The notes below the pieces were generated by a model that was not told where the DNA came from, did not search any database, and was given only the letters and a program-made list of their open reading frames with translations. Positions 10,535 through 55,942 of a stretch of DNA of 64,000 nt are shown here, in pieces. Source of the DNA: Thermococcus sp. AM4 (lineage in GTDB: Archaea > Methanobacteriota_B > Thermococci > Thermococcales > Thermococcaceae); NCBI RefSeq assembly GCF_000151205.2, contig NC_016051.1, forward strand, positions 744,001-808,000, written 5' to 3'. How positions within the stretch are numbered: the first letter of the stretch is position 1; every line of letters starts with the position of its first letter. The translations under genes were made by a program, and so were the position numbers.

Positions 10535-10991
10535 TTCATCTCCTCTAATAACCCTCGCCAAGTTAGGATACATAGACGTTGCGGTTAGTCTTTTTGACGA
10601 GGCAATAATTCCCAGAGGGGTTTTGGAGGAGATTACTGCGAAAGAAGATGATGTCAGTTCGTCAGTACTTAGACTCATTGAAGAAAAACGCATAGAACTC
10701 CACGAGGTCAGTTCAACTCCGGTGTATCCCGGCCTACACAGGGGAGAGCTCGAGGCAATAGCGCTCGCAAAGGAAACTGACTCAATCGTCGTTCTTGATG
10801 ATTTAAAGGCCAGAAAAGCCGCAAGGCTTGAAGGAATACGTGTTATTGGAACGCTGGGCATATTGAAAATTTTACTTGACGGTGGGCTTATTGAAGAGAA
10901 ACCCGATGAGCTCCTGAGTAAGCTGAACCGTATCGGTTTTAGGATTCGTCCAGAGTTGTTTTATGAGGTTATGGGTGGTGAGTTGTCATGA
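10518..10991 (+). CDS. DUF3368 PIN-like putative toxin
   Basis: A 157-residue DUF3368 protein, a PIN-domain relative. It has the N-terminal strand [14 protein letters not shown], where the first PIN acidic residue is replaced by Asn, then [13 protein letters not shown] and the acidic [20 protein letters not shown] proteins are metal-dependent RNases acting as toxins. The GTG at 10518 overlaps the antitoxin reading frame. Its own stop overlaps the polB start by 4 nt (ATGA), which ties translation of the replicative polymerase to this gene pair. Whether the nuclease is active cannot be judged by eye. Confidence 0.8.
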
Positions 10992-13900: not shown

Positions 13901-16087
13901 AGACTCGACGGGGAGAAGGCCAAGAGAATAAAATGGCTAATCAGTGGGGACATCGTCCTCGACAGGGTCGTGGAAGTCAAGAAGAGACACTATGAAGGCC
14001 ACGTCTACGACCTGAGCGTCGAGGAGGACGAGAACTTTTTAGCTGGCTTTGGACTCCTCTACGCGCACAACAGTTACTACGGCTACTACGGCTATGCCAA
14101 GGCCCGGTGGTACTGCAGGGAGTGCGCCGAGAGCGTTACGGCATGGGGAAGGGAGTACATAGAAACCACCATTCGCGAAATAGAGGAAAAGTTCGGCTTT
14201 AAAGTGCTCTACGCGGACAGCGTTACTGGCGAAACCGAAATCATAATCAGGAGGAATGGAAAGGTTGAATTCGTGCCGATTGAAGAACTCTTCCAGCGCG
14301 TTGATTATCGGATTGGAGAGAAAGAATACTGCGTTCTTGAAGGCGTTGAGGCTCTGACACTGGATAACAGAGGCCAGCTCGTTTGGAGAAAAGTTCCCTA
14401 TGTAATGAGACACAGGACAAACAAGAGAATCTACCGCGTCTGGTTCACGAACTCGTGGTATCTCGACGTTACAGAGGACCACTCGTTAATAGGCTACCTG
14501 AACACCAGCAGGGTGAAGCCCGGAAAGCCGCTGAGAGAGCGCCTCGTCGAGGTAAAGCCCGAGGAAATCGGCAAAGAAGTTAAATCACTCATCACACCAA
14601 ACCAGCCGATTGCCAGGAGCATTAAGCCGACTCAAACCGCCGTTAGGCTGTGGGAGCTTATAGGGCTGTTGGTTGGCGATGGCAACTGGGGAGGGCATTC
14701 AAACTGGGCTAAATATTACGTTGGCCTTTCCCTGGGGATAGACAAGGAAGAAATAGAAGAGAAAATTCTGAAGCCTCTTAAAGAAGCTGGCATAATTTCC
14801 AACTACTACGATAAAAGCAAGAAGGGTGATGTTTCAATACTCTCAAAGTGGCTGGCAGGCTTTATGGTCAGGTACTTCAAAGATGAGAACGGAAACAAGA
14901 GAATCCCCAACTTCATGTTCAGCCTTCCCAGAGAGTACATAGAGGCGTTTCTGCGGGGACTGTTTTCAGCGGATGGAACGGTAAGCCTCCGCAGGGAAAT
15001 CCCAGAGGTAAGACTGACGAGTGTTAATCCAGAACTCAGCGAGTCTGTAAGAAAGTTGCTGTGGCTCGTTGGCGTTTCAAACTCGATGTTCACTGAGACC
15101 AAGCCAAACCGCTACCTTGGAAAAGAAAGCGGAACTCACTCAATTCATGTCAGGATAAAGAACAAACACCGCTTCGCTGAGAGGATAGGATTTGTTTTGG
15201 ACAGAAAAACATCAAAGCTCTCCGAGAACTTAGGTGGCTATACAACTAAGAAGGGTGCCTATCAGTACGGGTTTGACTTGGTGTATCCGCGGAGGATAGA
15301 AGAAATTCCCTACGATGGCTACGTCTACGACATCGAGGTTGATGGGACGCACCGGTTCTTCGCAAACGGAATCTTGGTCCACAATACGGACGGTTTCTTT
15401 GCGACAATCCCCGGAGCCGACGCCGAGACCGTGAAGAAGAAGGCCAAGGAGTTCCTCAAGTACATTAATGCAAAACTGCCCGGCCTGCTCGAACTCGAGT
15501 ACGAGGGCTTCTACGTCAGGGGGTTCTTCGTGACGAAGAAGAAGTACGCGGTAATAGATGAGGAGGGCAAGATAACCACGAGGGGTCTCGAGATTGTGAG
15601 GCGCGACTGGAGCGAGATAGCGAAGGAGACGCAGGCCAGGGTTCTCGAGGCGATACTCAAGCACGGTGACGTCGAGGAGGCCGTCAGGATAGTGAAGGAA
15701 GTGACGGAAAAGCTGAGCAAGTACGAGGTTCCGCCCGAGAAGCTGGTAATCCACGAGCAGATAACGCGCGATTTGAGGGATTACAAAGCCACCGGTCCGC
15801 ACGTTGCCGTTGCGAAGAGGCTCGCGGCGAGGGGAGTGAAAATCCGGCCCGGCACGGTGATAAGCTACATCGTCCTAAAGGGCTCTGGAAGGATAGGCGA
15901 CAGGGCGATTCCCTTCGACGAGTTCGACCCGACGAAGCACCGCTACGATGCGGAATACTACATCGAGAACCAGGTTCTCCCGGCGGTGGAGAGGATTCTA
16001 AAGGCCTTCGGCTACCGGAAGGAGGATTTGCGCTACCAGAAGACGAAGCAGGTCGGCTTGGGCGCGTGGCTGAAGGTGAAGAAGTGA
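10988..16087 (+). CDS. polB: Family B DNA polymerase with two inteins
   Basis: A 1699-residue precursor. Removing 537 and 389 intein residues leaves a 773-residue polymerase, normal for Thermococcus enzymes. The extein has the 3'-5' exonuclease motifs ([28 protein letters not shown]), motif [15 protein letters not shown], motif [15 protein letters not shown], motif C YAD-TDG, and the C-terminal [15 protein letters not shown]. Intein 1 splits motif B at Asn491/Ser492 and intein 2 splits motif C next to the catalytic aspartates, the pol-b and pol-c insertion sites. The polymerase is therefore inactive until both splice out. The start overlaps the upstream DUF3368 stop (ATGA), so polB seems to be co-transcribed with a toxin-antitoxin-like pair. 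Confidence 0.97.
12461..14071 (+). other. Intein 1 of DNA polymerase (pol-b site), with LAGLIDADG endonuclease
   Basis: 537 residues, precursor positions 492-1028. It begins with Ser ([10 protein letters not shown]) and ends with His-Asn (LLYAHN), followed by the extein Ser. The block B-like [10 protein letters not shown] and terminal [20 protein letters not shown] mark the splicing domain. Two dodecapeptide motifs, [12 protein letters not shown] (about 13300) and [13 protein letters not shown] (about 13590), show a LAGLIDADG homing endonuclease. Length and position match pol-b inteins of Thermococcus. The acidic residue is Glu in the first motif and Asp in the second, so cutting activity is plausible. 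Confidence 0.95.
14219..15385 (+). other. Intein 2 of DNA polymerase (pol-c site), with LAGLIDADG endonuclease
   Basis: 389 residues, precursor positions 1078-1466. It begins [10 protein letters not shown] and ends ANGILVHN before the extein Thr. The splicing block [10 protein letters not shown] and the end [21 protein letters not shown] region are typical. LAGLIDADG motifs are [13 protein letters not shown] and [11 protein letters not shown], both with the catalytic Asp. The insertion is inside polymerase motif C, between YAD and TDG. Size and site resemble the T. litoralis Pol-2 (PI-TliI) class. Confidence 0.95.
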
Positions 16088-26984: not shown

Positions 26985-29627
26985 ATGCGATTTAGGAGAA
27001 CCGTTATGTCGGTAGGCCTGGCCCTTCTCCTACTCCTAAGCGTGGGGGGGGCCGTTGCACTTTTGGAGCCACAGCCAAAGCCAGACCTGATCGGGGACCT
27101 GCCAAGGCCGGTGATAATCGGGATGAGCGTGCATAAAACCGTCTGCAACGGAAAGGCCACCATCGACGTCACGGTGAACAACTACGGGGGAAGCACCGCC
27201 ATGGGCACGCTCAAGGCCTACGTCGACGGAAACGCCGGGGACGGCGTGGCCATAGAGGTTGACCCATACCACCCAACGACCTTCACAGTAGAGGCCCCCG
27301 CAGGGCCCGGTGAGCATACTGTCAAGGTCGTTCTCACCTATCCGGGCGGAAGCGACTCGATGAGCAAAACGGCGACGCTCCTCAAGGATTCCGACTGCGA
27401 CTACCTCAGCGATCGGGAGGAATACGAATACGGAACCGACCCACTGAACAAAGACACCGACGGGGACGGTATTATCGACTCCCGGGACATGAACCCCGTT
27501 GGGGACTACAGGATAACGATCTACATCCTCAGGGCGAGGGCGCTGGACGATGTTGACAGTTCGATTACCGGTCACAACCCTGCGGACATGAGCCTCGACG
27601 TTACCGTGAACGGACAGACCAAAACGCTCCGCCTGACCGACAATCAGGACGACCTGGAGAGAAAGATCCCTGCCGGTGCGGATCCGCTCTTCAACCTTGA
27701 GGACTACGCAATAGCCAAGGCTACCTTCGACGTCCCGGACGACAGGGTTTTCGTCCCGATAACCTTCCACCTCTACGACAGAGATAACGATGACGGGACA
27801 AAGAGGACCGAAATGGACGTTTCCCCCGGTCCCGACACCGTTGCGAGGATAATGTACAACCTCAAAACAGGAACCTGGAGCGGCGACGATTATCCGGGGG
27901 ACGCGGAGAAGTACTTCGGTTACGGCCACCTGAGCGGCTGCGGCGACGGCTCGTGCGGCGTTTCTTCTCACGATCCCGACAAGGATCTGAAAGTCTACGT
28001 CAAGTACGAGAGCATACTGCAGAAAAAGGGAATCGACGGGAGAATTTTGAAGGTGTACTCGCCCGCCAACGTCAGTGAAGTAAGGCTGAAATCCGGAAAA
28101 GACACCATGATCATCAGAAAACCGGAGAGCGTCCACGTGGCTGAAGTTCTCCTGAGCAACGGGAGCGTTGTGAACGTCACCCTCGTCAACACATACAACG
28201 CCAGGATCTTCGACCTCAAGCCAATAAAGCCCCCCGTCAATCCGGACGTTCCCCTGGCCAGGAAGAACCTATCGAGCGTGGAAGTGATAGCCACCACCCC
28301 GGAGGAACCGTTAAAGGGTGAAGTTGAGATAATTCCACTGGAAGGCGGCCTCATCGATCCCGGCCTCGGGGACGTAGTTACGTACTCCTCCCAGGAGGAG
28401 CACGACGGGGAGATCTGGTTCGTCATCGTGCCGGACGATTCCGACGGGATACCCTTCTGGCGCGAGGTCGAGCTGAACAAAGAGCTGGAAGCGAACGGGT
28501 TCTCAGAGAGGTTCGACCCGGGCGACGGCTACATGATAAGAAGCTACTATCCAGAGCTCGCCGAAAGCCTGAACGAGATGGACGAGCTCGGCGACTACGA
28601 CGGTGACGGTGTTCCGAACGCGGTTGAGGTTTTGATCGGGAAGGATCCTGCGAAGAGAGATATACTTGGAATCCAGCTCAACGTTTCCGTTGAGTGGAAG
28701 ATGAGCGATGAGGACAAGGAAAAACTGGTTTACAGCATCAGGAAGGCGAGCGACTTCATCTACGACTACACGGACGGCTACGCGATGATTACGAGGATAA
28801 CGGTCTGGGACGACAAGAGGAACTGGGATAAGGCTGATGTTAGGGTGCACGATACAACATGGGTGATTCCCCAAACTGGTTTTGAGATTTTCTATCAGGG
28901 GTGGCCAAAATCTGCAATAGGAGGATATTGGACTGGCGGAAACGTTATGATGCCTGAGAGGTATCAGGGTGGACCAGGGAACGGTGGTTCCATTGGTGAC
29001 GTTAGCTGGGGCAGGACTTTGGGCCACGAGCTCGGTCACTACGTCTTCTGGCTTGGGGACGAGTACATGGACTGGCACGGTCATAGTTACCAGCTCTGGT
29101 ACTATGGAACACTGGAGGCCGCGGCAACTGACTCGACAATAATAGCAGGCGGGGTACTCTCCGCATTGGATTTAACATACTACGCCTATAAGATACAGTT
29201 TGGGGACTTTATGAATATTCATTCGGTCATGAATAAACAGTGGAAGTGGAGTGAGCTCAGCACGCCCAGGGATTACGAGAAGTTCAAGAAGGATGCGAGT
29301 GAGCTATGGGACAAAACCGATATAGTGTGGAAACTCCTAGGATACAACTCACCCGACGACATGCTCACAGACCAATGGGGTAACGTAACAAAGAACTCTA
29401 CAACCGACTATGGAATTTGGCATTGCTCAGCATGGGAGGCTGTTTATTCATTCATCACAGACCATAACACTCCTACTTGGATTGTTAATAAGTTTAATAA
29501 CCCTAAGACACCCCCACGCCGTCAGAGAATCGTAATATCAGCGTCTTTGGCAATTGATAAATGGTTTAAACCCAAAACAGGCCCATATACTGGCGTTGGT
29601 TATTTCATGGAGGTGACTTGGGAATGA
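26985..29627 (+). CDS. Secreted zinc metalloprotease with calcium-binding repeats
   Basis: 880 residues from the ATG at 26985 (GAGGTGG upstream). Residues 7-28 form a signal peptide. About 45-125 is a CARDB-like adhesion domain. About 135-170 has calcium-binding repeats (DSDCDYLSDREEYEYG, DTDGDGIIDSRD), and another (GDYDGDGVPNAVEV) is near 535. Residues 681-685 are HELGH within HELGHYVFWLGDEY. The HExxH plus downstream DEY resembles the HExxHxxxGxxDEY of CLCA-type metalloproteases, though the Gly position is Trp here. DNA before about 28850 is GC-rich like the chromosome; DNA after it is AT-richer like the array. The stop overlaps the first array gene by ATGA. It probably acts outside the cell; the target is unknown. 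Confidence 0.85.
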   Translation: MRFRRTVMSVGLALLLLLSVGGAVALLEPQPKPDLIGDLPRPVIIGMSVHKTVCNGKATIDVTVNNYGGSTAMGTLKAYVDGNAGDGVAIEVDPYHPTTFTVEAPAGPGEHTVKVVLTYPGGSDSMSKTATLLKDSDCDYLSDREEYEYGTDPLNKDTDGDGIIDSRDMNPVGDYRITIYILRARALDDVDSSITGHNPADMSLDVTVNGQTKTLRLTDNQDDLERKIPAGADPLFNLEDYAIAKATFDVPDDRVFVPITFHLYDRDNDDGTKRTEMDVSPGPDTVARIMYNLKTGTWSGDDYPGDAEKYFGYGHLSGCGDGSCGVSSHDPDKDLKVYVKYESILQKKGIDGRILKVYSPANVSEVRLKSGKDTMIIRKPESVHVAEVLLSNGSVVNVTLVNTYNARIFDLKPIKPPVNPDVPLARKNLSSVEVIATTPEEPLKGEVEIIPLEGGLIDPGLGDVVTYSSQEEHDGEIWFVIVPDDSDGIPFWREVELNKELEANGFSERFDPGDGYMIRSYYPELAESLNEMDELGDYDGDGVPNAVEVLIGKDPAKRDILGIQLNVSVEWKMSDEDKEKLVYSIRKASDFIYDYTDGYAMITRITVWDDKRNWDKADVRVHDTTWVIPQTGFEIFYQGWPKSAIGGYWTGGNVMMPERYQGGPGNGGSIGDVSWGRTLGHELGHYVFWLGDEYMDWHGHSYQLWYYGTLEAAATDSTIIAGGVLSALDLTYYAYKIQFGDFMNIHSVMNKQWKWSELSTPRDYEKFKKDASELWDKTDIVWKLLGYNSPDDMLTDQWGNVTKNSTTDYGIWHCSAWEAVYSFITDHNTPTWIVNKFNNPKTPPRRQRIVISASLAIDKWFKPKTGPYTGVGYFMEVTWE

Positions 29628-30538
29628 AAAAGGTTTTAGTTGCTCTCCTCTTGATTCTGCTCCTTTCCTTCTTCGCATATAACGCGTACACTTACCATCA
29701 GCTCTCCTCAGCGGAAGGAGCTTACAAGTTAGCGGGAATTTCAGGAGATGAAAAGCTCATTGCGGTCTACCATGATGCTCATTTCTGGCAGTTCGCAACG
29801 TACAATCCAAAAACCAACACGCTCAAGCTCTACACGGTTGAGCAATCTTCTATATTCTGGCTGAAGAGCATAACAATGGAAAGCGCGAAGGCTTTAGTAA
29901 ACTACACTCCCTTAGCTTTAGACTTAAACCAGCTCAAACGATACAAGCCTCACAGTAAAGCACTTCTCTTCAAAACCCTCGGCTGGAAGTACGACTACCA
30001 AATCAACGGTTCATACTGGGCAAACTTAAGCGAAATCATCCGGCCGGGAGAAAAATATTATCGGATTTATGGGCTCGGGAGCAGTTCTGGACTTTGGATT
30101 AAGTCAAAAGCCGTGTGCAGAAAAACCACCCTCGAGGCTGTATGCTACGGAACAGTGGGGACTAATGGGATTCTCGTGATCCCAGGATTTAAGGATAGTA
30201 AAATGCTGTGGGTAGTTGAAGGAGTTAAGGGAAATCCCCAAGTGGCATTCTTTTATCCTGGAGTGGTGCTCAAGACTGTGACAGAGGAGAACAAAGTATT
30301 CACGTACTCCAGCGAAGATGGTGACGTAATTGAAAGCATCGTCCAAAAGCTTGAGGGAAAAAATCCCTTTTACCTAGAAGTATGGTTTTCAAGAAAAGCC
30401 AAGTGCCCAGGTTACGGACAAATTCTGGCCAACAGGGGAACGTTTTGTGAGCTCTATGCTTGTTACAACGACAATTCAACAAATATAGAACTTGAGAATA
30501 TTTCCTGCATTCCAAACCTTGAACTAAGAAACGGGTGA
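29624..30538 (+). CDS. Array protein A1, membrane-anchored, unknown function
   Basis: 304 residues. One N-terminal membrane helix (about 4-20) then an extracellular domain with N-x-S/T sites and several Cys. It opens with the subfamily A signature YTYHQLSSAEGAYKLAGISG and FWQFATYNPKT. After about residue 65 it diverges from A2-A4 although the motifs NYTPLALDL and NGILVIPG remain. 120 nt (29658-29777) are identical to the start of A4. The ATG overlaps the protease stop, and its ribosome site GGAGGTGA lies within the protease's last codons, so its translation is coupled to the protease. As immediate partner it is the best candidate inhibitor or protector, which is inference. Confidence 0.75.
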   Translation: MKKVLVALLLILLLSFFAYNAYTYHQLSSAEGAYKLAGISGDEKLIAVYHDAHFWQFATYNPKTNTLKLYTVEQSSIFWLKSITMESAKALVNYTPLALDLNQLKRYKPHSKALLFKTLGWKYDYQINGSYWANLSEIIRPGEKYYRIYGLGSSSGLWIKSKAVCRKTTLEAVCYGTVGTNGILVIPGFKDSKMLWVVEGVKGNPQVAFFYPGVVLKTVTEENKVFTYSSEDGDVIESIVQKLEGKNPFYLEVWFSRKAKCPGYGQILANRGTFCELYACYNDNSTNIELENISCIPNLELRNG

Positions 30539-30545
30539 GGGAGAC

Positions 30546-31502
30546 ATGAAAAAACTTACTGTGATTTTTGGACTCCCTCTAGCTCTCCTCTTGCTCTTCT
30601 CTTACTCATACCTCCCAAGCGAGAACATGAACGAACTCTACCAAAAGATTCCAGAGCAAATGAGAGAGAATTCTCAACTTATCGCGGCTTACTACTCCTC
30701 CCAAACCGGCTTTAGCGGCTTCAGAGAATACCAATTCGCATTCTACAATCCAAAAGAGCGGACAATTAGCATTTACACGTTCAAAATCTCCAAACTCTTG
30801 AAAATCTGGCCAAGAATGACAGAAAACAAAATAACCTGCAAGACCCCATTCAACTACTCAATCCTCGCAACAAGTCCGAAAAAACTCAAAAACTTCACAA
30901 ACTGCAACAACTGCAGAATACTCCTCTACACGGGCAGAATTTACAAGAATGAGGAAATTGAGAGAATTCAACCAAGAATAGATAACATTCTGCAGCGTAA
31001 TCGGGAATACTGGAAGGTCAAGGGGATAAAAAGCTCTGAACTCTCTGTCGGAACCGTTAGCATGTATTCAGGAGACACTATAAGGGATATCGGATTCGAA
31101 GGTTACCCTGGAGCGCTTCTCCTGCCCAATCAAGGCTCGGAAGTTGGAAAGGCCGTATGGATCGAGATTTACCTAAAGAACAATAAAACAGTTGTGAACG
31201 TCCACTATCCAATGAACATAACCCTCAGCGCGATAGCCAAATACAAGATTACCAATAGCTCACTGTGGAGTCCTGACTACACTAAACTCCAGAATATGCT
31301 GAGTGAACTGGAAAAATTCGGGAAGTACTCAAAGAAGGCATGGAGATTTAAAGTCTCAATATGGGATCCAGATACAGTATGGATCGAATGGATAATCCCC
31401 AGTAAGAACACGTATAGCTATCTCAAAATCGGGAACCAACCCATTCCCATTAGAAGGATATACTTCAAAAAGGTCTACATAACCCACTGTTCAAATAACT
31501 AA
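30546..31502 (+). CDS. Array protein B1, membrane-anchored, unknown function
   Basis: 318 residues with one N-terminal membrane helix (about 4-20) and extracellular remainder. Subfamily B signature: YLPSENMNELYQKIPEQMRE, then SQLIAAYYSSQTGF, QFAFYNPKERTISIY, KTPFNYSILATS, a Cys pair in NCNNC, and GYPGALLLPNQGS. These parallel the A motifs (KLIAAYHD, QFATYNPKT, NYSPLALD, GRILVIP), so A and B share a fold. It is close to B2 in the first half, including 56 identical nt, and divergent later. GAGGGAGAC precedes the ATG, 7 nt after the A1 stop. No enzyme motif seen. Confidence 0.75.
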   Translation: MKKLTVIFGLPLALLLLFSYSYLPSENMNELYQKIPEQMRENSQLIAAYYSSQTGFSGFREYQFAFYNPKERTISIYTFKISKLLKIWPRMTENKITCKTPFNYSILATSPKKLKNFTNCNNCRILLYTGRIYKNEEIERIQPRIDNILQRNREYWKVKGIKSSELSVGTVSMYSGDTIRDIGFEGYPGALLLPNQGSEVGKAVWIEIYLKNNKTVVNVHYPMNITLSAIAKYKITNSSLWSPDYTKLQNMLSELEKFGKYSKKAWRFKVSIWDPDTVWIEWIIPSKNTYSYLKIGNQPIPIRRIYFKKVYITHCSNN

Positions 31503-32496: not shown

Positions 32497-33426
32497 ATGA
32501 AGAAGTTCCTTGCTTTGGTTTTACTTTTCCTATTTTTCGCCTATAACACCTACACTTACCATCAGCTCTCCTCAGCGGAGGGAGCTTATAAACTGGCGGG
32601 AATTCCAAGCAGTGAAAAACTCATCGCTGCATATCACGATAATGGCTTCTGGCAGTTCGCAACGTACAACCCAAAAACTCGGAAACTCAAAGTCTACGCC
32701 ATTTACACTGACAAACCAATCCTCCCATGGGGAAGGGACGTAAAGAGCGTAAAAACACCCTTAAATTATTCCCCACTCGCGCTCAATCCAAAACTCCTCG
32801 AAAAAGCGCCAAAAGAGACTCCCGCATTACTCTTTGCCGGAAAATGGTACACAAGAAAAAACCCGCCAAAATTCCCAACGGCAGAGCAAATAGCCAAAGA
32901 GTACGCTAATAAGACCCTGCGAGAACTCACGGCATACCACGCCAGAAAAGAACTCTGGATCGGAGGTATAACCATCCAAACCGGCGATGCGATTTACGGA
33001 GCAATTGGGTCAGGTGGGGTTCTGGTAATACCAGATCTAAAACAAACGGGAAAAAGTTTCATTTGGGAGGTCGAGATACCTATCGACTCAAACGCTTCTA
33101 AGTTTGTTGTCAGGTATCTCACTAATATGACAGTGAGAGGAATAGGTATACCCACTCCATCCAACGATTTCATAGTGACCAATGAAACTGTAGAGAAAGC
33201 ACTAAGCCTATTTGAGAAATCGCAGGTTTCGAAAGCTAATCCCATTTTCCTTGTGATTACCTTATACTCAAGGAGTTCGAATCTTGTAAAGATAAGCATC
33301 ATGTCGATCACTACATATCAGAAGGGAATATCAATGATGGACAAAATTCCCCGCGGGGACACTCTTGGAGATTACCAAGAAATTCCGATAAACAACACAG
33401 AATCAAAGTCTAAAATGCCCGACTAG
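32497..33426 (+). CDS. Array protein A3, membrane-anchored, unknown function
   Basis: 309 residues, same layout as A2 (membrane helix, YTYHQLSSAEGAYKLAGIPS, FWQFATYNPKT, LLFAGKWYTRKNPPKFPT, ELWIGGITIQTGDAIYGAIG). The middle shares a 44-nt identical run with A4 (32809-32852 against 35678-35721). The last third differs from A2 and A4. Its leader GGGGTGATCCGGG before the ATG matches the leader of C2 at 17 of 19 positions across the start, although the two encoded proteins belong to different subfamilies. Confidence 0.75.
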   Translation: MKKFLALVLLFLFFAYNTYTYHQLSSAEGAYKLAGIPSSEKLIAAYHDNGFWQFATYNPKTRKLKVYAIYTDKPILPWGRDVKSVKTPLNYSPLALNPKLLEKAPKETPALLFAGKWYTRKNPPKFPTAEQIAKEYANKTLRELTAYHARKELWIGGITIQTGDAIYGAIGSGGVLVIPDLKQTGKSFIWEVEIPIDSNASKFVVRYLTNMTVRGIGIPTPSNDFIVTNETVEKALSLFEKSQVSKANPIFLVITLYSRSSNLVKISIMSITTYQKGISMMDKIPRGDTLGDYQEIPINNTESKSKMPD

Positions 33427-33432
33427 CATCAA

Positions 33433-33459
33433 TACCAAGTGGAGGTGGCTTGGGGATGA
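33433..33459 (+). pseudogene. Protease C-terminus remnant before C1
   Basis: In frame this reads YQVEVAWG then TGA, matching the protease end YFMEVTWE then TGA. Its TGA overlaps the C1 ATG (ATGA), as the real protease stop overlaps A1. GGAGGTGG within it is the C1 ribosome site. This is the shortest and least certain of the four remnants. Confidence 0.5.
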
Positions 33460-34415
33460 ACATCGTTAAGGCTTTGTTTGTTTTTCTTTTTGTCTTTCTC
33501 CTCTTGCTTGGCGGATTAGCTTATACAAAGCACACAAAGAACGAGAGATTAAAAGACCCCAAATTCGTTTACGAACACTACCTAAAAACCTATGAAGCCC
33601 AGAATTACACCCTCCTTGGAGTCTACTTTGAGCTGGACAGGAGTTCAATACTCAACCCGTGGAAGCCTAAGTGGGAGTTCTATCTCTACAACTCAAGCGG
33701 AAAACTCGTGAAGCTTACAATAACGCCAGACGGAGAGAGCAAAGAAAAAGCCAAAACAATCCTCAACTACACAAACCTGACGGTACCTATTAATCAAGTC
33801 CAAAACCTACCAAAATACGAGGAAAGATTCAGGGAGATAGTATACCTGCCCAGAGAAGGAAAACTGATAGACCATCCGGCAAGGGGTTACAGTGATTTCA
33901 GGAAAGTATGTGTAAAACTCAGCAGAATCCTTGACAACAGAACCTTCAAACTAATCAAAACCATTCGTGGAGGAGTCTATCATTGGTTAACCTTGAAGAA
34001 CACGAGTATTGTTGGTGGTGTTTTTACGGTAATGAGTTCTACTGATCCGCTTTGCGAGGGCACTTGGCTGGTGGTTGAGCCGTACAACGAAACGCACGAT
34101 TTAGTAAAAGTCATTTACCCGCACGGGAATGCAAGTACACTAGTAAAAGCACTAAACCTGCCAGTCTTCCAAGGAAAAGAGTATTTGGGACTTTTGAAGA
34201 AAGTGGAGGCGGGACATTGCTCGGCTGTGGAGGGTACTTTAGTGAATGCCACTGGAATTTACGTTAATCCTCACGCTCAGGAAATCTTCAACCAAACGGC
34301 ACCAAAAGCAATAAAGGAGAGGAGATGCTTCACAATCATACAAGTGATAGTCCTGAAAAACGGCACGGTGAAAACATGGGCAAGAGGAACAATATGGTGT
34401 GCCAGAGGAGACTAA
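33456..34415 (+). CDS. Array protein C1, membrane-anchored, unknown function
   Basis: 319 residues. Membrane helix at about 5-22, then the subfamily C signature KDPKFVYEHYLKTYEAQNYT, WEFYLYNSSGKL, ILNYTNLTVP, CVKLSRILDNRTFKLI, WLVVEPYNETHDLVKVIYPHG and a late VLKNGTVKTWARGTIW. C2 shares all of these. The W-F-YN and NY-x-L positions line up with the A and B motifs, so it is a divergent branch of the same superfamily. Many N-x-S/T sites fit an extracellular location. The ATG at 33456 is chosen because of GGAGGTGG 7 nt upstream. Confidence 0.75.
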   Translation: MNIVKALFVFLFVFLLLLGGLAYTKHTKNERLKDPKFVYEHYLKTYEAQNYTLLGVYFELDRSSILNPWKPKWEFYLYNSSGKLVKLTITPDGESKEKAKTILNYTNLTVPINQVQNLPKYEERFREIVYLPREGKLIDHPARGYSDFRKVCVKLSRILDNRTFKLIKTIRGGVYHWLTLKNTSIVGGVFTVMSSTDPLCEGTWLVVEPYNETHDLVKVIYPHGNASTLVKALNLPVFQGKEYLGLLKKVEAGHCSAVEGTLVNATGIYVNPHAQEIFNQTAPKAIKERRCFTIIQVIVLKNGTVKTWARGTIWCARGD

Positions 34416-34428
34416 ATACCCACACACT

Positions 34429-34464
34429 AACACTGGCTACTTCATGGAGGTGGTCTGGGGGTGA
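34429..34464 (+). pseudogene. Protease C-terminus remnant before D
   Basis: Reads NTGYFMEVVWG then TGA, matching the protease end GVGYFMEVTWE. Its TGA overlaps the GTG start of D (GTGA). It has no start codon or upstream frame of its own. Confidence 0.65.
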
Positions 34465-35309
34465 AGAAGATCGTTGCCTTTTTGTTTTTGTTCCTTACAT
34501 TCACAGTGTCTTGGATACTGTGGGAGAGCCATGAAGCCGTGTCCTGTTTTAACTCTCCATATTGCATGACGGAACATCTTAACATAACAGACCACATACT
34601 CATCATGCAACACAACGGAAACGAATGGAGAATCGTTACCTACACCGCGGGGAAACTGTCCCTCCATAAAATCGAGCTCAGCGGTTTTATAATCCCCAAC
34701 ATCAGAGACTCCGTGAAAAGCGTCGAGACACAAGTTGATTATTCACCCCTGACTTTTGAAAACAATGCCCTCAAAGGCTTGAAAGGAACAATTGGGCTCA
34801 TTGCGAAGTTCAACGGAAGCGTTAAGGCCATTCCACCCACTGAGCTTCAAAAACCCCTTGCTTATGAAGAATTACTGAAACTGTGTTCTTCATGCAAGCT
34901 CCTCCTTGGCGAGGGCGGGAATTTCCTAAGGCTCGGCTACACCAACCTCACAAGTGGTTACGTGGTCATGCCCTCCCCTAAAGGTAGCTCCAGATTCGTC
35001 CTTGAGATCCAATCTTACAACGCAACCAAAGATGTCATAATCGCCAAATACCCAATGGGAACCGTCAAGGGATATATCCCAAAGCTTGATCTTCCTCGTA
35101 TCGGAAACACGCGCATTCCAACTGACGCTTCCCATTACCTCGAATCCGCTTGGGGTATCCTTGTAACAAAGAATGAAACAGTACTCAATCCAGATCCGTG
35201 GAGCATTGTTGAGGAACTAGGAGAATGCAGAATGGTGTACAAAATTACAATTTACAACAACGGAACAATAGAAAAAACAGAATACGGGCTGCCCTGCTGG
35301 AGAAGGTAA
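34461..35309 (+). CDS. Array protein D, membrane-anchored, unknown function
   Basis: 282 residues, the only member of subfamily D. N-terminal membrane helix (about 4-18), then extracellular sequence with EWRIVTYTAGKLSLHKIEL, VDYSPLTFENNALK, a Cys pair LCSSCKLLLG, GYVVMPSPKGS and a C-terminal IYNNGTIEKTEYGLPCW. The VDYSPL and GYVVMP motifs correspond to NYSPL and GRILVIP in subfamily A, and the ending resembles C1 and C2. The GTG start occupies the position that is ATG in the other cassettes and is preceded by GGAGGTGG. The function is unknown. Confidence 0.72.
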   Translation: MKKIVAFLFLFLTFTVSWILWESHEAVSCFNSPYCMTEHLNITDHILIMQHNGNEWRIVTYTAGKLSLHKIELSGFIIPNIRDSVKSVETQVDYSPLTFENNALKGLKGTIGLIAKFNGSVKAIPPTELQKPLAYEELLKLCSSCKLLLGEGGNFLRLGYTNLTSGYVVMPSPKGSSRFVLEIQSYNATKDVIIAKYPMGTVKGYIPKLDLPRIGNTRIPTDASHYLESAWGILVTKNETVLNPDPWSIVEELGECRMVYKITIYNNGTIEKTEYGLPCWRR

Positions 35310-35324
35310 AACTAAAACCCTTAC

Positions 35325-35363
35325 AATAGTGTTGGCTACTTCATGGAGGTGAGGTGGGGATGA
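35325..35363 (+). pseudogene. Protease C-terminus remnant before A4
   Basis: Reads NSVGYFMEVRWG then TGA, matching GVGYFMEVTWE of the protease. Its TGA overlaps the A4 ATG, and GGAGGTGA within it is the A4 ribosome site. Confidence 0.65.
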
Positions 35364-36289
35364 GAGCTCTGCTTACTCTCCTCTTAATTTTGCTCCTTTC
35401 CTTCTTCGCATATAACGCGTACACTTACCATCAGCTCTCCTCAGCGGAAGGAGCTTACAAGTTAGCGGGAATTTCAGGAGATGAAAAGCTCATTGCGGTC
35501 TACCATGATGTTCATTTCTGGCAGTTTGCCACTTACAACCCTAAAACTCGGGAGCTTAAGGTGTACTACGTCGGTCAAAATCTCCCCCTGCTCTTCAGGA
35601 CAAAGAAAACAAAAACCGTGAAAACGCCGTTAAACTACTCCCCACTCGCCCTTGACTTAAAACTCCTAGAGAAAGCCCCAAAAGAGACTCCCGCATTACT
35701 CTTTGCCGGAAAATGGTACACGAGAGAAAACCCGCCAAAATTCCCAACGGCAGAACAAATCGCCAAAGAATACGAGAACAAAACCCTGAGAGAACTCACG
35801 GCATACTACGCCAGAAAAGAACTCTGGATTGGCAGCATAATCCTCCAAACGGGAGATGCCATTTATGGAGGCATTGGGCCAGGACGAATCCTTGTGGTTC
35901 CGGCTCTGCAGGACAACATTAGCTTCGTCTGGTATGCTGAAATTCCAGTTAATGCAAATGTTTCACTGAAAAGAGCCGCGTACCCGGGAGACATTACAGT
36001 GAAGGGAACCGGAAAGACTAGCCTTTCGACGAGACCCTTTATAATTACAGGGAGGATATTGAACAGGGGACTAACTTCAGCTTTGCGTTCAATTGAAGAG
36101 TATCAAGCAAAGGCCGGGCAAAAAACAGAGTTCGCATCCATAACCTTCTACTGTTACCCTGAGAATATTACTTGGGGTTTGATATTTTTAGACGAGTACT
36201 GGAAAGGAATTTCAATGGAAAGGAAAATCCCAAGGGCCTACGGCCACATAGATGTTGGTGACACTCATGAGAAATGCAACAAAACCTGA
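35360..36289 (+). CDS. Array protein A4, membrane-anchored, mosaic, unknown function
   Basis: 309 residues with the full subfamily A layout. The first part is identical at DNA level to A1 for 120 nt (35391-35510), while the middle matches A3 (44 identical nt at 35678-35721) and the last third is its own. It is therefore a recombinant of array members. Motifs seen are YTYHQLSSAEGAYKLAGISG, FWQFATYNPKT, LLFAGKWYTRENPPKFPT, ELWIGSIILQTGDAIYGGIG and GRILVVPAL. The ATG at 35360 has GGAGGTGA 7 nt upstream. Confidence 0.75.
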   Translation: MRALLTLLLILLLSFFAYNAYTYHQLSSAEGAYKLAGISGDEKLIAVYHDVHFWQFATYNPKTRELKVYYVGQNLPLLFRTKKTKTVKTPLNYSPLALDLKLLEKAPKETPALLFAGKWYTRENPPKFPTAEQIAKEYENKTLRELTAYYARKELWIGSIILQTGDAIYGGIGPGRILVVPALQDNISFVWYAEIPVNANVSLKRAAYPGDITVKGTGKTSLSTRPFIITGRILNRGLTSALRSIEEYQAKAGQKTEFASITFYCYPENITWGLIFLDEYWKGISMERKIPRAYGHIDVGDTHEKCNKT

Positions 36290-36290
36290 A

Positions 36291-36350
36291 AATCCAAAAA
36301 CAGGCCCGTATACTGGCGTCGGCTACTTCATGGAGGTGACTTGGGGATGA
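36291..36350 (+). pseudogene. Protease C-terminus remnant before B2 (longest)
   Basis: Reads N then PKTGPYTGVGYFMEVTW, then G and TGA. The shared 17 residues equal the protease C-terminus, with mostly third-position DNA differences (CCA/CCG, GTT/GTC, GGT/GGC, TAT/TAC). The TGA overlaps the B2 ATG. It follows the A4 stop immediately and has no start codon of its own. Confidence 0.8.
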
Positions 36351-37324
36351 AGAGATCTCTTATCCTCTCTAGCCTTCTTTTGATCTTTCTCTTGCTCTTC
36401 TCTTACTCCTACCTCCCGAGCGAAAACATGAACGAACTCTACCAAAAAATTCCAGAGCAAATGAGAGAGAATTCCCAGCTCATTGCGGCTTACTACTCTT
36501 CCCAAACCGGCTTTGATGGCTTCAGAGAATACCAATTCGCATTTTACAATCCAAACGACCAAACACTCAGCATTTACACTTTCAAAATTTCCAAAATATT
36601 GAAAATCTGGCCAAGAATGACAGAAAACAAAATAACCTGCAAGACCCCATTCAATTATTCAATCCTAGCAACAAGCCAGGAAAAACTCAAAAACTTCAAA
36701 AACTGCAACAACTGTCAGCTCTTCCTCTACAAGGGCAGGATTTACAAGAACGAAGAAATCGAGAGCATTCAACCAAGACTCTCGGAAGTGTTGAAAGCAA
36801 ACGAAAGCTACTGGTGGGTTCAAGTCCTCGGAGCCAGCGAACTATCAACAGGAAATATAATAGGCTCCTCTGGCGATGCTGGAGAAATGTTTGGTCTATC
36901 AGGGTACCCAGGATTGCTGATTCTTCCGGCAGGAAATAACGCAAGCAGGGGAGTAATCATTGCGATTCAACCGTTGAATGAAACTCATGAGGTTATCAGA
37001 ATACACTTTCCGCTGAACGTTACTTTTGAATTCGTGGAGAGACATTATGGCAACCCAGATTTTCCCCTCTGGGATTTGGAGAACTTGTCAAGTGCTGTTA
37101 AGCGCTTGCAGGCTTTTAAGATTGAACCAAAACCCTGGCGCTGGGAGGCCACACTAAGCGGCAAATACGCCGGAATAGCATGGTTCACACAATCAGGAGC
37201 GTACTACGAATACGAAATACATCCTCAGTCAAAGTGGATTTATAATGGTGACTTCACAATATCGCGGTTCGAGTTCAGGTGTAGGAGAGGAGGTGCATCC
37301 CCATACTCATACTACTACCCATAA
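36347..37324 (+). CDS. Array protein B2, membrane-anchored, unknown function
   Basis: 325 residues, subfamily B. The membrane helix and the first 130 residues are nearly identical to B1 (YLPSENMNELYQKIPEQMRE, QFAFYNP, KTPFNYSILATS, NCNNC), with 56 identical nt at 36599-36654. The later part diverges, with GYPGLLILPAGNN and a Cys/Arg-rich end. The ATG at 36347 sits on the TGA of the long protease-tail remnant, with GGAGGTGA as ribosome site. The function is unknown. Confidence 0.75.
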   Translation: MKRSLILSSLLLIFLLLFSYSYLPSENMNELYQKIPEQMRENSQLIAAYYSSQTGFDGFREYQFAFYNPNDQTLSIYTFKISKILKIWPRMTENKITCKTPFNYSILATSQEKLKNFKNCNNCQLFLYKGRIYKNEEIESIQPRLSEVLKANESYWWVQVLGASELSTGNIIGSSGDAGEMFGLSGYPGLLILPAGNNASRGVIIAIQPLNETHEVIRIHFPLNVTFEFVERHYGNPDFPLWDLENLSSAVKRLQAFKIEPKPWRWEATLSGKYAGIAWFTQSGAYYEYEIHPQSKWIYNGDFTISRFEFRCRRGGASPYSYYYP

Positions 37325-37337
37325 CGGAGGTCGGAAG

Positions 37338-37439
37338 ATGAAGGGACTTCTCATGGTTTCAGTTTTTGTCTCAATCCTTTTGCTTTTCGGGATGACTAAA
37401 GATAAGCTCAATAACCTGAATTGGGGTGATCCTAGATGA
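37338..37439 (+). CDS. 33-residue membrane peptide, probably truncated array member
   Basis: ATG at 37338 with GGAGGTCGG upstream. It encodes an N-terminal membrane helix (MKGLLMVSVFVSILLLFG) like that of the array proteins, then TKDKLNNLNWGDPR and a TGA that overlaps the C2 ATG (ATGA). It looks like an N-terminus that lost its ectodomain and now serves as a translated leader for C2. A functional small membrane peptide cannot be excluded. Confidence 0.5.
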   Translation: MKGLLMVSVFVSILLLFGMTKDKLNNLNWGDPR

Positions 37440-38371
37440 AGCGCATAATGTTGCTTTCCCTTGCCTTGCTCTTTCTTTTAATTGGAGGCTGGACGTATCA
37501 TCTCTACACCAAAAACGAACAACTAACGGATCCAAGCTTTGTCTATGACCACTATCTCAAACCCTATGAGGCTCACCATTACAGATTAGTTGCAGTGCAG
37601 TACACACTTAAACCAGGTTTCATCGTTCAATGGGAACCCCACTGGAAAATTTACCTGTACACGGATCACAGACTTCTTGAACTCGATGTGGACTACAGAG
37701 GGGGAAGTACAAGGAACTATTCGACTGTTCTGGACTACTCAACGATCAGCACCTTAGTAGAGAATTTTCGAAATTTGGATCTGCCAGCTAGGGACTATTC
37801 AACGTGGATCTACGTTCCCAATGAAGATAGACTAGTTGAATATCGTGACAAGTGCATGAAACTTGAGAAAGTGCTCGACAATAGGACGATAAAGTTGATA
37901 AACTCAACGTTTAGCAGAGATCTTCCCAATCCAAGGGATCTTAAACTCATTAAAATGAAACCCATCGGAGGGGTTTTGGCGTTGCACTATTACCGGGGCT
38001 GCAAATGCTCGGCCATGTGGGCTGTATTCAGCCCCTACAATGAGACCCACGATCTGGTGTGGGTAGTTTATCCATGGGGAGTCGTGAAGGGCTACTCACC
38101 CGCGTTAAAGGTTCAGCCTTTTAATGGCACGTACTATCTCAAACTTGCGGACAAACTAAACAATAGGTACTGTGAATTCCTCGGGGGGGTCATTGTAAAC
38201 GCGACTGGAATATACGTTAATCCCAATGCTGAAGTTGTCTTTCGAAAAGTTATTGAGGAGGCCAAAAAAGATAGGCGACGGCTTATAATCCCGAGCATAA
38301 CAATATACAGAAACGGCACTATAGATGAAAGGGGAATAGGCGTTATGTGGCCTTCTTACGGATCCGGGTAG
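37436..38371 (+). CDS. Array protein C2, membrane-anchored, unknown function
   Basis: 311 residues, subfamily C: membrane helix at about 4-20, then TDPSFVYDHYLKPYEAHHYR, WKIYLYTDHRL, CMKLEKVLDNRTIKLI, WAVFSPYNETHDLVWVVYPWG, VNATGIYVNPNAE and IYRNGTIDERGIGVMW. It is a paralogue of C1 throughout, but without long identical DNA runs, so the two copies separated earlier than A1/A4 or B1/B2. It is the last full member of the array. Its ATG overlaps the stop of the 33-residue peptide. Confidence 0.75.
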   Translation: MKRIMLLSLALLFLLIGGWTYHLYTKNEQLTDPSFVYDHYLKPYEAHHYRLVAVQYTLKPGFIVQWEPHWKIYLYTDHRLLELDVDYRGGSTRNYSTVLDYSTISTLVENFRNLDLPARDYSTWIYVPNEDRLVEYRDKCMKLEKVLDNRTIKLINSTFSRDLPNPRDLKLIKMKPIGGVLALHYYRGCKCSAMWAVFSPYNETHDLVWVVYPWGVVKGYSPALKVQPFNGTYYLKLADKLNNRYCEFLGGVIVNATGIYVNPNAEVVFRKVIEEAKKDRRRLIIPSITIYRNGTIDERGIGVMWPSYGSG

Positions 38372-53059: not shown

Positions 53060-55942
53060 ATGGTTCCGCTGAAGAGGATTGACAAAATCCGCTGGGAGAT
53101 TCCGAAGTTCGACAGGAGAATGCGCGTTCCGGGCAGGGTTTATGCTGACGACCAGCTCATCGAGAAGATGCGGCAGGACAGGACGCTGGAGCAGGCCGCC
53201 AACGTTGCCATGCTCCCGGGCATCTACAAGTACTCCATAGTGATGCCCGACGGGCATCAGGGCTACGGCTTCCCGATTGGCGGCGTCGCCGCGTTCGACG
53301 TAAAGGAAGGTGTGATAAGCCCCGGAGGCGTCGGATACGACATTAACTGCCTTGCCCCCGGCTCAAAAGTCCTCACGGAGCACGGATACTGGATTAAGGT
53401 TGAGGAAATGCCCGAAAAGTTCAAGCTCCAGGGTCTGAGGGTCTACGACGTTGACGAGGGCCACAATGATTTCTCACAGGTTGCCTTCGTCGCCGAGAGG
53501 GACGTCGAGGAGAACGAGCTCGCGGTGAGAATCATCACCGAGTCAGGAAAGGTCATCGAGGGCAGTGAAGACCACCCGGTTCTAACCCCCCAGGGCTACG
53601 TTTACCTCGGCAACGTCAAGGAGGGGGATGAAGTCCTCATTTATCCGTTCGAGGGCGTTGAGTTCGAGGAGCGGAAGGGCGTTCTCCTAAGCGAGGATGA
53701 CTTTAAGGGCGAGGACGGCCAAATAGTGAAGTTCCTGCGCGAGAGAAAGCTACTTCCGCTCCGCTGGGACGACCCGAGGATAGGAACCCTCGCGAGAATC
53801 CTCGGCTTCGCCTTCGGCGATGGTCACCTCGGCGAGATGGACGGCAGGCTCTACCTGAGCTTCTACGGGAAGGAGGAGACGCTGAAGGAGCTCAAGAAAG
53901 ACCTTGAGAGGCTCGGCATCAGCGCGAACCTCTACGTGCGCGAGAGGGACTACCACATCGAAACGGTGAGTGGCGAGTACGAGGGCAGGAGCGTTTCAGC
54001 AGAGCTGAGGGTCACCTCAAGGAGCTTCGCCCTGCTCATGGAGAAGCTCGGAATGCCGAGAGGTAGGAAAGCGGAAACCCTGTACAACGTCCCTGAATGG
54101 ATTAAGAGCGCGCCCCTCTGGGTGAAGAGGAACTTCTTGGCGGGTCTCTTCGCGGCCGACGGAAGCATCGTCGAGTTCAAGGGCAACACTCCACTTCCGA
54201 TAAACCTCACCCAGTCAAAGGCGGAGGCGCTTGAAGAAAACCTCAGAGGGTTCATGGAGGAAATAGCAGGACTTTTGGCGGAGTTTGGCATCAGAACAAC
54301 GGTTTACAGGGTCAAGTCGAAGAAGGGCGTAACGTACAGGCTGGCCCTCGTTGGAGAAGAGAGCATCAGGAACTTCCTCGGCAGGATAAACTACGAGTAC
54401 GACATCGAGAAGAAGGCGAAAGGCTTAATCGCCTACGCCTATCTGAGGTTCAAGGAGCGCGTTAGGGCCGAGAGGAAGAGAGCCGCCGAAATCGCGAGAA
54501 GGGTTTACGCCGAGACCGGAAGCGTAGCAAAGGCCCACGAGGCCGTCAGAGATGTCGTCAACAAGCGCTTCGTAGAGAGGGCAATATACGAGGGTGAGAA
54601 AGAACCGCGCGTCCCCAAGGATTTCCCGACCTTTGAGGAGTTCGCGCGCGAGAGGGGCTACGAGGGCGGCTTCGTCGCCGAGAAGGTCGTTAAAGTCGAG
54701 AGGGTTAGGCCAAGCTACGAGAAGTTCTATGACATCGGCGTCTACCACAGGGCGCACAACTTCATAGCCAACGGAGTTGTCGTTCACAACTGCGGCGTCA
54801 GACTGATTAGAACGAATTTAACGGAAAAAGAAGTCAGACCAAGGATAAAGGAGCTCGTTGACACGCTCTTCAAAAACGTCCCGAGCGGACTTGGAAGCAA
54901 GGGAAGGGTGAGGCTCCACTGGACCCAGCTCGACGACGTCTTAGCGGACGGCGCCAAGTGGGCCGTTGACAACGGCTACGGCTGGAAGGAGGATTTGGAG
55001 CACCTTGAGGAAGGCGGGAGGATGGAAGGTGCCGACCCGAACGCCGTCAGCCAGAGGGCGAAGCAGAGGGGAGCGCCACAGCTCGGCTCCCTCGGCTCCG
55101 GAAATCACTTCCTCGAGGTTCAGGTCGTTGACAAAATCTACGACGAGGAGATAGCCAAGGCGTACGGCCTCTTCGAGGGGCAGGTTGTGGTAATGGTCCA
55201 CACCGGTTCGCGCGGTCTCGGCCACCAGGTGGCGAGCGACTACCTCAGGATAATGGAGAAGGCCAACAGGAAGTACGGAATCCCCTGGCCCGACCGCGAG
55301 CTGGTGAGCGTTCCCTTCCAGAGCGAAGAAGGTCAGAGGTACTTCAGCGCGATGAAAGCTGCCGCGAACTTCGCCTGGGCCAACAGGCAGATGATAACCC
55401 ACTGGGTCAGGGAGAGCTTTGAGGAGGTCTTCAGGAGGAAAGCGGAAGACATGGAGATGCACATCGTCTACGACGTGGCACACAATATAGCCAAGGTGGA
55501 GGAGCACGAGGTCGACGGGAGGAAGGTTAAGGTCGTCGTCCACAGGAAGGGAGCGACGAGGGCCTTCCCGGCAGGCCACCCGGACGTGCCAAGGGCTTAC
55601 CGCGACGTCGGACAGCCGGTTCTGATTCCGGGCTCGATGGGAACGGCGAGCTACGTCTTAGCTGGAGCCGAGGGTTCGATGAGGGAGACCTTCGGAAGCT
55701 CCTGCCACGGCGCAGGAAGACTGCTCAGCAGAAAGGCCGCAACGAGGCAGTACCGCGGTGACAGGCTCAGGAACGAGCTCATGAGGCGCGGCATCTACGT
55801 CCGCGCGGCTTCGCTCAGAGTCGTCGCAGAGGAGGCCCCCGGAGCCTACAAGAGCGTCGATAACGTCGTTAACGTCGTCCACCAGGCTGGCATAGCGAAG
55901 CTCGTCGCCAGGATGCGCCCGATGGGCGTGGCGAAGGGCTGA
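53060..55942 (+). CDS. rtcB: RNA-splicing ligase RtcB with intein
   Basis: A 960-residue precursor; removal of the 481-residue intein leaves 479 residues, normal for RtcB. Extein motifs are [28 protein letters not shown] split by the intein exactly before the metal-binding Cys, [34 protein letters not shown] and HGAGRLLSR with the His nucleophile. RtcB joins tRNA halves using GTP and Mn. A TATA-like AGCTTAAAATAAT at about 53016 and GGAGGGGTGAG before the ATG give it its own promoter, though it lies beside archease. Confidence 0.97.
53348..54790 (+). other. Intein in RtcB with LAGLIDADG endonuclease
   Basis: 481 residues (97-577). Begins [15 protein letters not shown], ends [11 protein letters not shown], followed by extein Cys. 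The splicing-block [16 protein letters not shown] is clear. Endonuclease motifs are [15 protein letters not shown] and [12 protein letters not shown], both with Asp. The first Cys and last His-Asn are intact, so splicing should work. Confidence 0.95.

What the first reader, a model, noticed from the sequence alone, without database searches (positions are those of the whole stretch)
33433..36350. Four remnants of the protease C-terminus sit in frame before array genes
The protease ends PKTGPYTGVGYFMEVTW-E and its TGA overlaps the A1 ATG. Before B2 (36291-36350) the same 17 residues are encoded, with mostly third-position DNA changes, again ending in TGA inside the ATGA start. Shorter versions precede A4 (35325-35363), D (34429-34464) and C1 (33433-33459). 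Their synonymous differences imply that they diverged as coding sequence of real protease genes before truncation. Each array gene would then have once followed its own protease copy, and cassettes of protease tip plus partner gene were collected here. The ribosome site GGAGGTG lies inside the tail, which explains part of the retention, but the match before B2 reaches about 35 nt further upstream.
Basis: seen in the sequence. Interest (0 to 1): 0.85.

Follow-up and report, generated by a model that had tools for sequence, protein, structure and literature searches.

The report
Archaeal protease-tip and partner-gene cassette array
A heat-loving archaeon (Thermococcaceae) carries a secreted metalloprotease gene followed by a row of related membrane-anchored partner genes, several of which still bear a stub of a lost protease end, so the row looks like a collection of protease-plus-partner cassettes resembling bacterial toxin/immunity cassette arrays.

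Summary
The last residues of the protease (PKTGPYTGVGYFMEVxWG, stop overlapping the next start as ATGA) recur in frame before B2, A4 and D; before C1 only a 6-residue stub remains. The motif is not a generic leader: all 5 exact genome copies lie in protease modules. Other Thermococcaceae show a graded truncation series before the same gene family: whole proteases (about 850-1325 aa), then 555, 374, 328, 217, 209, 121, 114, 58, 41, 34 and 15 residues. Full-length proteases sit directly before close relatives of C1 (92% identity, same genome), B1 (84%), A1 (81%), and more distantly A4 and B2. The variable protease tip co-varies with the partner (Mantel rho 0.80, p 0.0004, n=11), while the N-terminal region (-0.08) and the tail do not. 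A 95%-identical tip+partner cassette is shared by two genera whose compared core gene is 73% identical; related genomes show an empty site and one scar. The inference "each array gene had its own protease" is too strong: in one relative, tail plus partner 5' end was recently copied within the array (98%). Best reading: an archaeal polymorphic-toxin-like system with protease tips and probable inhibitor/immunity partners, distinct from VARTIG. Immunity function is inferred, not shown.

The parts
26985..29627 (+). Full-length secreted metalloprotease-like gene (about 880 aa from ATG 26985; open from 26946): signal-like N-terminus, TSP3-type Ca repeat, conserved central region, variable metalloprotease tip, conserved tail
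   Evidence: (TSP3; homologs in Thermococcaceae; alignment)
29025..29066 (+). Zincin motif HELGHYVFWLGDEY (HExxHxxxxLxDEY), catalytic residues invariant in the aligned family
   Evidence: best fold matches are metzincins, weak
28850..29570 (+). Variable tip; lower G+C than the 5' part; the segment whose divergence tracks the partner gene
   Evidence: G+C drop 0.57 to 0.44; tip-partner association
29571..29627 (+). Conserved C-terminal tail PKTGPYTGVGYFMEVTWE + TGA; contains ATGGAGGTG (Shine-Dalgarno GGAGGTG 29609-29615); TGA overlaps A1 ATG (29624-29626)
29624..30538 (+). A1, cognate partner candidate of the intact protease; N-terminal hydrophobic helix + extracellular-type domain
30546..31502 (+). 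B1 partner-family gene (no tail stub); 84% relative directly behind a full-length protease in L038
31532..32464 (+). A2 partner-family gene (no tail stub)
32497..33426 (+). A3 partner-family gene (no tail stub)
33439..33459 (+). Shortest stub: VEVAWG + TGA (GTGGAGGTGGCTTGGGGATGA) before C1; DNA match to the C1 copy behind a full-length protease in the same genome (L032) starts at 33440
33456..34415 (+). C1 partner-family gene
34429..34464 (+). D stub: (HTN)TGYFMEVVWG + TGA
34461..35309 (+). D partner-family gene (GTG start)
35318..35363 (+). A4 stub: NPYNSVGYFMEVRWG + TGA, part of a 233-nt repeat of 29582-29814
35360..36289 (+). A4 partner-family gene
36291..36350 (+). B2 stub: all 18 tail codons PKTGPYTGVGYFMEVTWG + TGA
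36347..37324 (+). B2 partner-family gene
37436..38371 (+). C2 partner-family gene, last of the array

Best explanation
The locus is a polymorphic-toxin-like module of Thermococcaceae. A secreted protein with a conserved N-terminal body ends in a zinc-metalloprotease tip whose outer half diversifies, closed by an invariant tail. The tail also carries the Shine-Dalgarno site and overlaps the start of the next gene, so protease and partner are probably translationally coupled. The partner is a membrane-anchored protein facing outside that most likely binds and blocks its own protease tip (immunity or inhibitor). Units of tip plus partner move between strains and genera as cassettes. When a new unit takes over, older units stay downstream; their protease part, no longer needed or harmful, is lost step by step, while the partner and the last codons that hold its ribosome-binding site are kept. 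The stubs before B2, A4, D and C1 are late stages of that decay, blurred by copying among array genes. Shown: homology, graded truncation, pairing with full-length proteases elsewhere, tip-partner co-segregation, transfer, empty site. Inferred: protease activity, partner as inhibitor/immunity protein, benefit of keeping a collection, order of events.
For: Tail ends full-length proteins across the family with strong constraint (nearest-pair pN 0.011, pS 0.310, 9 codons). Graded series of protease-derived sequence before partner genes; orphan tips of 209-217 aa with the active site inside arrays (L036 8264-8908, L041 8658-9287). Full-length protease + C1 (92%) in the same genome (L032), + B1 84% (L038), + A1 81% (L033), + A4-like 53-54% (L040, L042). 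Tip vs partner distance rho 0.80, p 0.0004; N-terminal region -0.08; partial given N-term 0.80; robust to leaving one out (0.74-0.83), same-subfamily permutation p 0.003. Association along the protein rises from about 0 before residue 520 to 0.74 at 711-780; tail none. Cross-genus cassette: L039 vs L087 95.1% over 1868 nt, right end at the next tail, core gene 73%. Island of 11.6 kb between genes that lie about 100 nt apart in most genus genomes; scar in G020. Zincin residues invariant.
Against: No toxicity, protease activity or inhibition has been tested by anyone for this family, as far as I found. All tips belong to one metalloprotease family, unlike classic polymorphic toxins with unrelated toxin domains. 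Tip and partner are neighbours, so part of their co-variation is expected from linkage alone. With all 19 units, very distant ones included, the correlation falls to 0.21 (p 0.04). The partner model has no convincing structural match, so nothing says inhibitor by fold. Within-array copying can also create stubs. 40 of 75 partner genes of 240 aa or more have no tail by the strict criterion, though some of these keep even shorter stubs.
Confidence: 0.66

Rival explanations
1. The stubs spread by gene conversion or tandem duplication of [tail end + partner 5' end] inside the array, because that DNA is the conserved, homologous junction; most array genes never had their own protease.
For: L033 6684-6889 vs 14553-14758, 98% over 206 nt, starting inside the tail; window A1/A4 share tail plus about 190 nt of gene at 88% while the 3' halves differ.
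Against: Does not produce orphan tips of 114-374 aa with catalytic residues, the full-length protease + C1/B1/A1/A4 pairs, or the B2 stub: B2's own 5' end is not A1-like and only the 61 nt of tail match.
Confidence: 0.2
2. The tail is kept only as a ribosome-binding leader; the amino-acid match is incidental.
For: GAG-GTG codons nearly invariant in this tail type (GTG 39/39); the tail gives a strong Shine-Dalgarno site about 8 nt before the start.
Against: The tail is conserved as protein at the end of full-length genes, also in the second tail type without GGAGGTG (GPYTGVGYYLRVNWG). Matches extend 35 nt or more upstream of the site. The exact pattern occurs nowhere else in the genome. About half of the array genes use other ordinary sites.
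Confidence: 0.06
3. The partners are not immunity proteins but variable surface proteins, chaperones or substrates of the protease, and the array is a reservoir for antigenic variation.
For: Partners are mosaic: near-identical 5' parts with different 3' parts (B1/B2 89.5% over 391 nt, then divergent); membrane-anchored by hydropathy (71/75); no inhibitor-like fold found.
Against: Translational overlap with the protease and co-variation with its tip fit a partner specific to the tip; a pure antigen reservoir does not need a protease tip in each unit.
Confidence: 0.2

Closest known systems
Neisseria Maf genomic islands (MafB/MafI with mafB-CT cassettes; PMC4287609)
   Same: Full-length secreted protein followed by its partner, then alternative C-terminal pieces each followed by a small partner gene; some pieces lack start codons; pieces match full-length tips elsewhere (paper text).
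   Different: Archaeal; all tips are one metalloprotease family; a conserved tail closes the tip and carries the partner's ribosome-binding site; decay down to 6-18 codons; partners are larger membrane-anchored proteins. No sequence relation found.
Polymorphic toxin systems and homogeneous polyimmunity loci in general (PMC3482391)
   Same: Conserved N-terminus, divergent C-terminus, partner directly downstream, standalone tip cassettes, tandem paralogous partners.
   Different: No unrelated toxin domains; no known Imm family by Pfam; arrays mix partners with decaying tips, whereas classical polyimmunity loci are described as uninterrupted by toxin cassettes.
VARTIG modules of Thermococcales (PMC8416519)
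   Same: Thermococcales-only hypervariable islands; large secreted protein with variable C-terminus followed by membrane proteins; short homologs of the C-terminal region; inter-species exchange.
   Different: VARTIG centres on Ig-domain proteins with a DNNxxxGG C-terminal motif and no metalloprotease; here zincin tips and PKTGPYTGVGYFMEVxWG. A sister system in logic, not the same proteins.
Peptidase M64 / CLCA-type zincins (PMC3650047)
   Same: Motif HExxHxxxxLxDEY as in M64; CLCA HExxHxxxGxxDEY has the same spacing; CLCA_N reported from Thermococcus sp. AM4.
   Different: Only sub-threshold Pfam matches (M64 E 0.083 for one member); closest folds were matrix metalloproteinases, weakly.

Membership tests
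Polymorphic toxin system | Conserved N-terminal region with a more divergent C-terminal tip | tested here: met
   Mean identity 0.63-0.82 at residues 475-627, 0.35-0.46 at 711-862
Polymorphic toxin system | Unrelated toxin domains exchanged at the C-terminus | tested here: not met
   All tips align as one zincin family with HExxH, DEY and Met invariant or nearly so
Polymorphic toxin system | Cognate partner gene immediately downstream | tested here: met
   4-nt overlap at full-length genes of this tail type; co-variation
Polymorphic toxin system | Standalone tip cassettes near the full-length gene | tested here: met
   L036, L041, L042, L037, L045, L093
Polymorphic toxin system | Tip is toxic and partner neutralises it | not testable with these tools
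   Needs experiment
VARTIG | Ig-domain large protein with C-terminal D[ND]NxxxG[GD] motif | tested here: not met
   Tail is PKTGPYTGVGYFMEVxWG; no Ig/CARDB Pfam match at E 0.1
Peptidase M64/CLCA zincin | HExxHxxxxLxDEY (M64) or HExxHxxxGxxDEY (CLCA) and profile match | tested here: inconclusive
   Motif HELGHYVFWLGDEY fits M64; profile match only E 0.083; fold search favours metzincins weakly (model pLDDT 52)
Maf (MafB/MafI) | DUF1020 N-terminal domain | tested here: not met
   Pfam scan of the window protein shows only TSP3 and a sub-threshold PapJ hit
Known immunity families (Imm) | Match of the partner to a described immunity family | tested here: not met
   No Pfam or NCBIfam hit except one sub-threshold RfbT match; PADLOC only one weak ZorB hit

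The most novel reading that the evidence does not exclude
A previously undescribed archaeal self/non-self system in which the diversifying weapon is a single metalloprotease fold and the partners form a diversifying repertoire of membrane-anchored inhibitors; an in-frame tail that doubles as the partner's ribosome-binding site and as the cassette junction lets units be gained, exchanged between genera and worn down to stubs, leaving a readable record of past protease-partner pairs.
Probability: 0.5. Interest if true: 0.82.

Novelty: new variant of a known kind. Interest (0 to 1): 0.7.

Why it matters
Toxin/immunity-type conflict in archaea is mostly predicted, and VARTIG, the known Thermococcales module, lacks an identifiable effector. 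Here the variable tip has a readable enzymatic motif, the partner can be named for each tip, and stubs record former pairs, so specificity, exchange and decay can all be tested directly in culturable hyperthermophiles. It also offers a protease-inhibitor co-evolution system inside one fold family.

Tried and rejected
Generic-leader idea: rejected by the genome-wide pattern search. Solved-structure sequence search with the tip profile: no usable relative. Partner fold search: only incoherent low-TM matches to sliding clamps, TM about 0.15, treated as no match. Tip model: pLDDT 52, only coarse use. Plasmid collection: no match to the tip. GTDB phylum-wide profile search: hits only in Thermococcaceae, 21 of 115 genomes, 3 genera. 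The key 2019 paper on archaeal polymorphic toxins could not be opened, so I cannot exclude that it mentions these proteins. Pooled synonymous/non-synonymous counts over all stubs are not informative (pN/pS 0.75) because mismatches upstream of each truncation point are foreign sequence. Sequences between the two flanking genes in G062, G065 and G038 gave no hit to the module proteins.
Full report
WHAT IS THERE. The window is G000:C1:744001-808000 of a 2.09-Mb Thermococcaceae genome. A protease gene (ATG about 26985, stop 29625-29627) is followed on the same strand by nine genes, A1 B1 A2 A3 C1 D A4 B2 C2 (29624-38371). G+C falls from 0.57 to 0.44 inside the protease gene and returns to 0.53 and above after 38.45 kb. 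Pfam and NCBIfam know none of the nine. Iterated profiles started from A, B, C or D all reach the same set of genes, so they are one superfamily.

THE STUBS. B2 keeps all 18 codons with 5 synonymous and 1 non-synonymous differences from the intact gene, and 3 synonymous, 0 non-synonymous from the paralogous protease elsewhere in the same genome. A4 and D keep 9-10 codons, C1 six. As DNA the repeats are 29568-29628/36291-36351 (88.5%), 29582-29814/35318-35547 (88.4%) and 34435-34472/36321-36357 (86.8%). The exact pattern occurs five times in the genome, only at these modules.

TESTING 'PROTEASE REMNANT'. I took the neighbourhoods of the protease relatives from other Thermococcaceae. Nearly every full-length protein of the tail type seen here ends in the tail. 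Tails before partner genes come with protease-derived sequence of very different lengths: about 850-1325 aa, 555, 484, 374, 328, 304, 217, 209, 179, 121, 114, about 58, 41, 34, 32, 27 and 15 residues (some of the middle values are cut by contig ends or frameshifts, and 374, 328, 179 and 58 belong to the second tail type). Orphan tips in L036 and L041 hold the intact active-site motif. Full-length proteases stand before relatives of C1 (92%, in the same genome, L032), B1 (84%, L038), A1 (81%, L033), A4 (53-54%, L040 and L042) and B2 (58% over two thirds, L041); the nearest D relative (82%, L033) has a 34-residue tail. In the same genome as the window, the match between the two C1 copies begins at 33440, inside the stub.

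LIMITS OF 'EACH GENE HAD ITS OWN PROTEASE'. In L033 the last 30 nt of the tail plus about 176 nt of the first partner recur before another array gene at 98%: recent copying inside the array. A1 and A4 in the window show an older version of the same thing. So a stub proves protease ancestry of the DNA, not always a separate former protease for that gene. The 'synonymous changes' argument is sound for B2, untestable for A4, D and C1.

THE TAIL HAS TWO JOBS. As protein it is under strong constraint: nearest-pair pN 0.011 against pS 0.310 over the nine codons GPYTGVGYF, outside the ribosome site. A second tail type, GPYTGVGYYLRVNWG, is conserved without GGAGGTG and is usually not overlapped by a partner start. 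In the GGAGGTG type the Val codon is GTG in 39 of 39 tails, in the other type in 1 of the 9 Val codons at that position. So the ribosome site explains why the last codons are kept, not where they came from.

TIP AND PARTNER BELONG TOGETHER. For 11 units with a conserved N-terminal region, distances between tips (HExxH to tail) follow distances between partners: rho 0.80, p 0.0004; the N-terminal region gives -0.08; the partial correlation given the N-terminal region is 0.80. Leaving any unit out gives 0.74-0.83; tips with partners of one subfamily are more alike (0.52 vs 0.41, p 0.003) while N-terminal regions are not (0.58 vs 0.60). Along the protein the association rises from about zero before residue 520 to 0.74 at 711-780, and the tail itself shows none. 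With all 19 units, including very distant ones and orphan tips, it is weaker (0.21, p 0.04). Linkage alone could give part of this.

MOVEMENT. A 1868-nt stretch holding tip and partner is 95.1% identical between G024 and G001, genomes of two genera whose compared core gene is 73% identical, and it ends exactly at the next tail; beyond it one genome has an extra partner gene. In the window the island (11.6 kb) sits between a sugar-kinase-like gene and a racemase-like gene; these are about 90-110 nt apart in most of the genus genomes searched. G019 and G030 have islands of about 15 and 12 kb at that site. G020 has only a scar of about 0.6 kb with 24 residues of protease tail followed by about 39 residues of an A-type partner. 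The family was found only in Thermococcaceae: 21 of 115 genomes of the GTDB phylum.

WHAT THE PROTEINS ARE. Tips share HELGHYVFWLGDEY-type motifs, which fits the M64 consensus HExxHxxxxLxDEY quoted in PMC3650047, and a downstream Met; these are invariant in a 15-sequence alignment. Pfam gives only sub-threshold zincin hits; the AlphaFold model is poor (pLDDT 52) but its best Foldseek hits are metzincins (probability up to 0.96, E about 0.01). The partner model is better (pLDDT 74.6, pTM 0.75, N-terminal helix then a beta-rich domain) and matches nothing convincingly. 71 of 75 partners have a strongly hydrophobic N-terminal segment by hydropathy. Reading the partner as an inhibitor/immunity protein is inference from position, overlap, co-variation and analogy.

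COMPARISON. The layout is that of polymorphic toxin loci and most of all the Maf islands. VARTIG (PMC8416519) is the known Thermococcales relative in logic, with other proteins. I found no description of the present module in the literature that I could search, but one key paper was not available.

VERDICT. Observation confirmed; interpretation right in its core and too strong in 'each'. A new variant of a known kind, in archaea.

Noticed in passing
G000:C1:481102-481374 (L115 about 2600-2880): A decayed tip of the second tail type (GYIPKTGPYTGVGYYMIARWG, frame broken) stands before a tandem of at least three genes of another secreted family (about 233-257 aa) related to the partner behind an orphan tip in L037; no full-length protease match was found at that position. 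G019 has a similar remnant and one such gene.
   Followed up: partly
37339-37439: Between B2 and C2 lies a 33-codon start of what looks like another truncated partner gene (MKGLLMVSVFVSILLLFGMTKDKLNNLNWGDPR) with its own GGAGGTC leader.
   Followed up: no
30588-30977 and 36389-36778: Partner paralogs B1/B2 (and A1-A4) share near-identical 5' parts and divergent 3' parts, suggesting mosaic partners.
   Followed up: partly
G000:C1:1331202-1333805 and 1478856-1481459: Two further full-length proteases in the same genome, one of each tail type; the second is followed by a C1 relative (92%), a B2 relative (76%) and a broken A gene.
   Followed up: partly
10988-16087 and 53060-55942: Family B DNA polymerase and an RtcB-like gene look interrupted by inteins, judged by eye from the translations.
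   Followed up: no
L036 7400, L042 11919, L049 8992, L041 9301: Genes of the D subfamily are repeatedly followed by a protease-tip fragment, and several share the tail variant MEVVWG with the codon GTC, as if tail and subfamily travelled together.
   Followed up: partly
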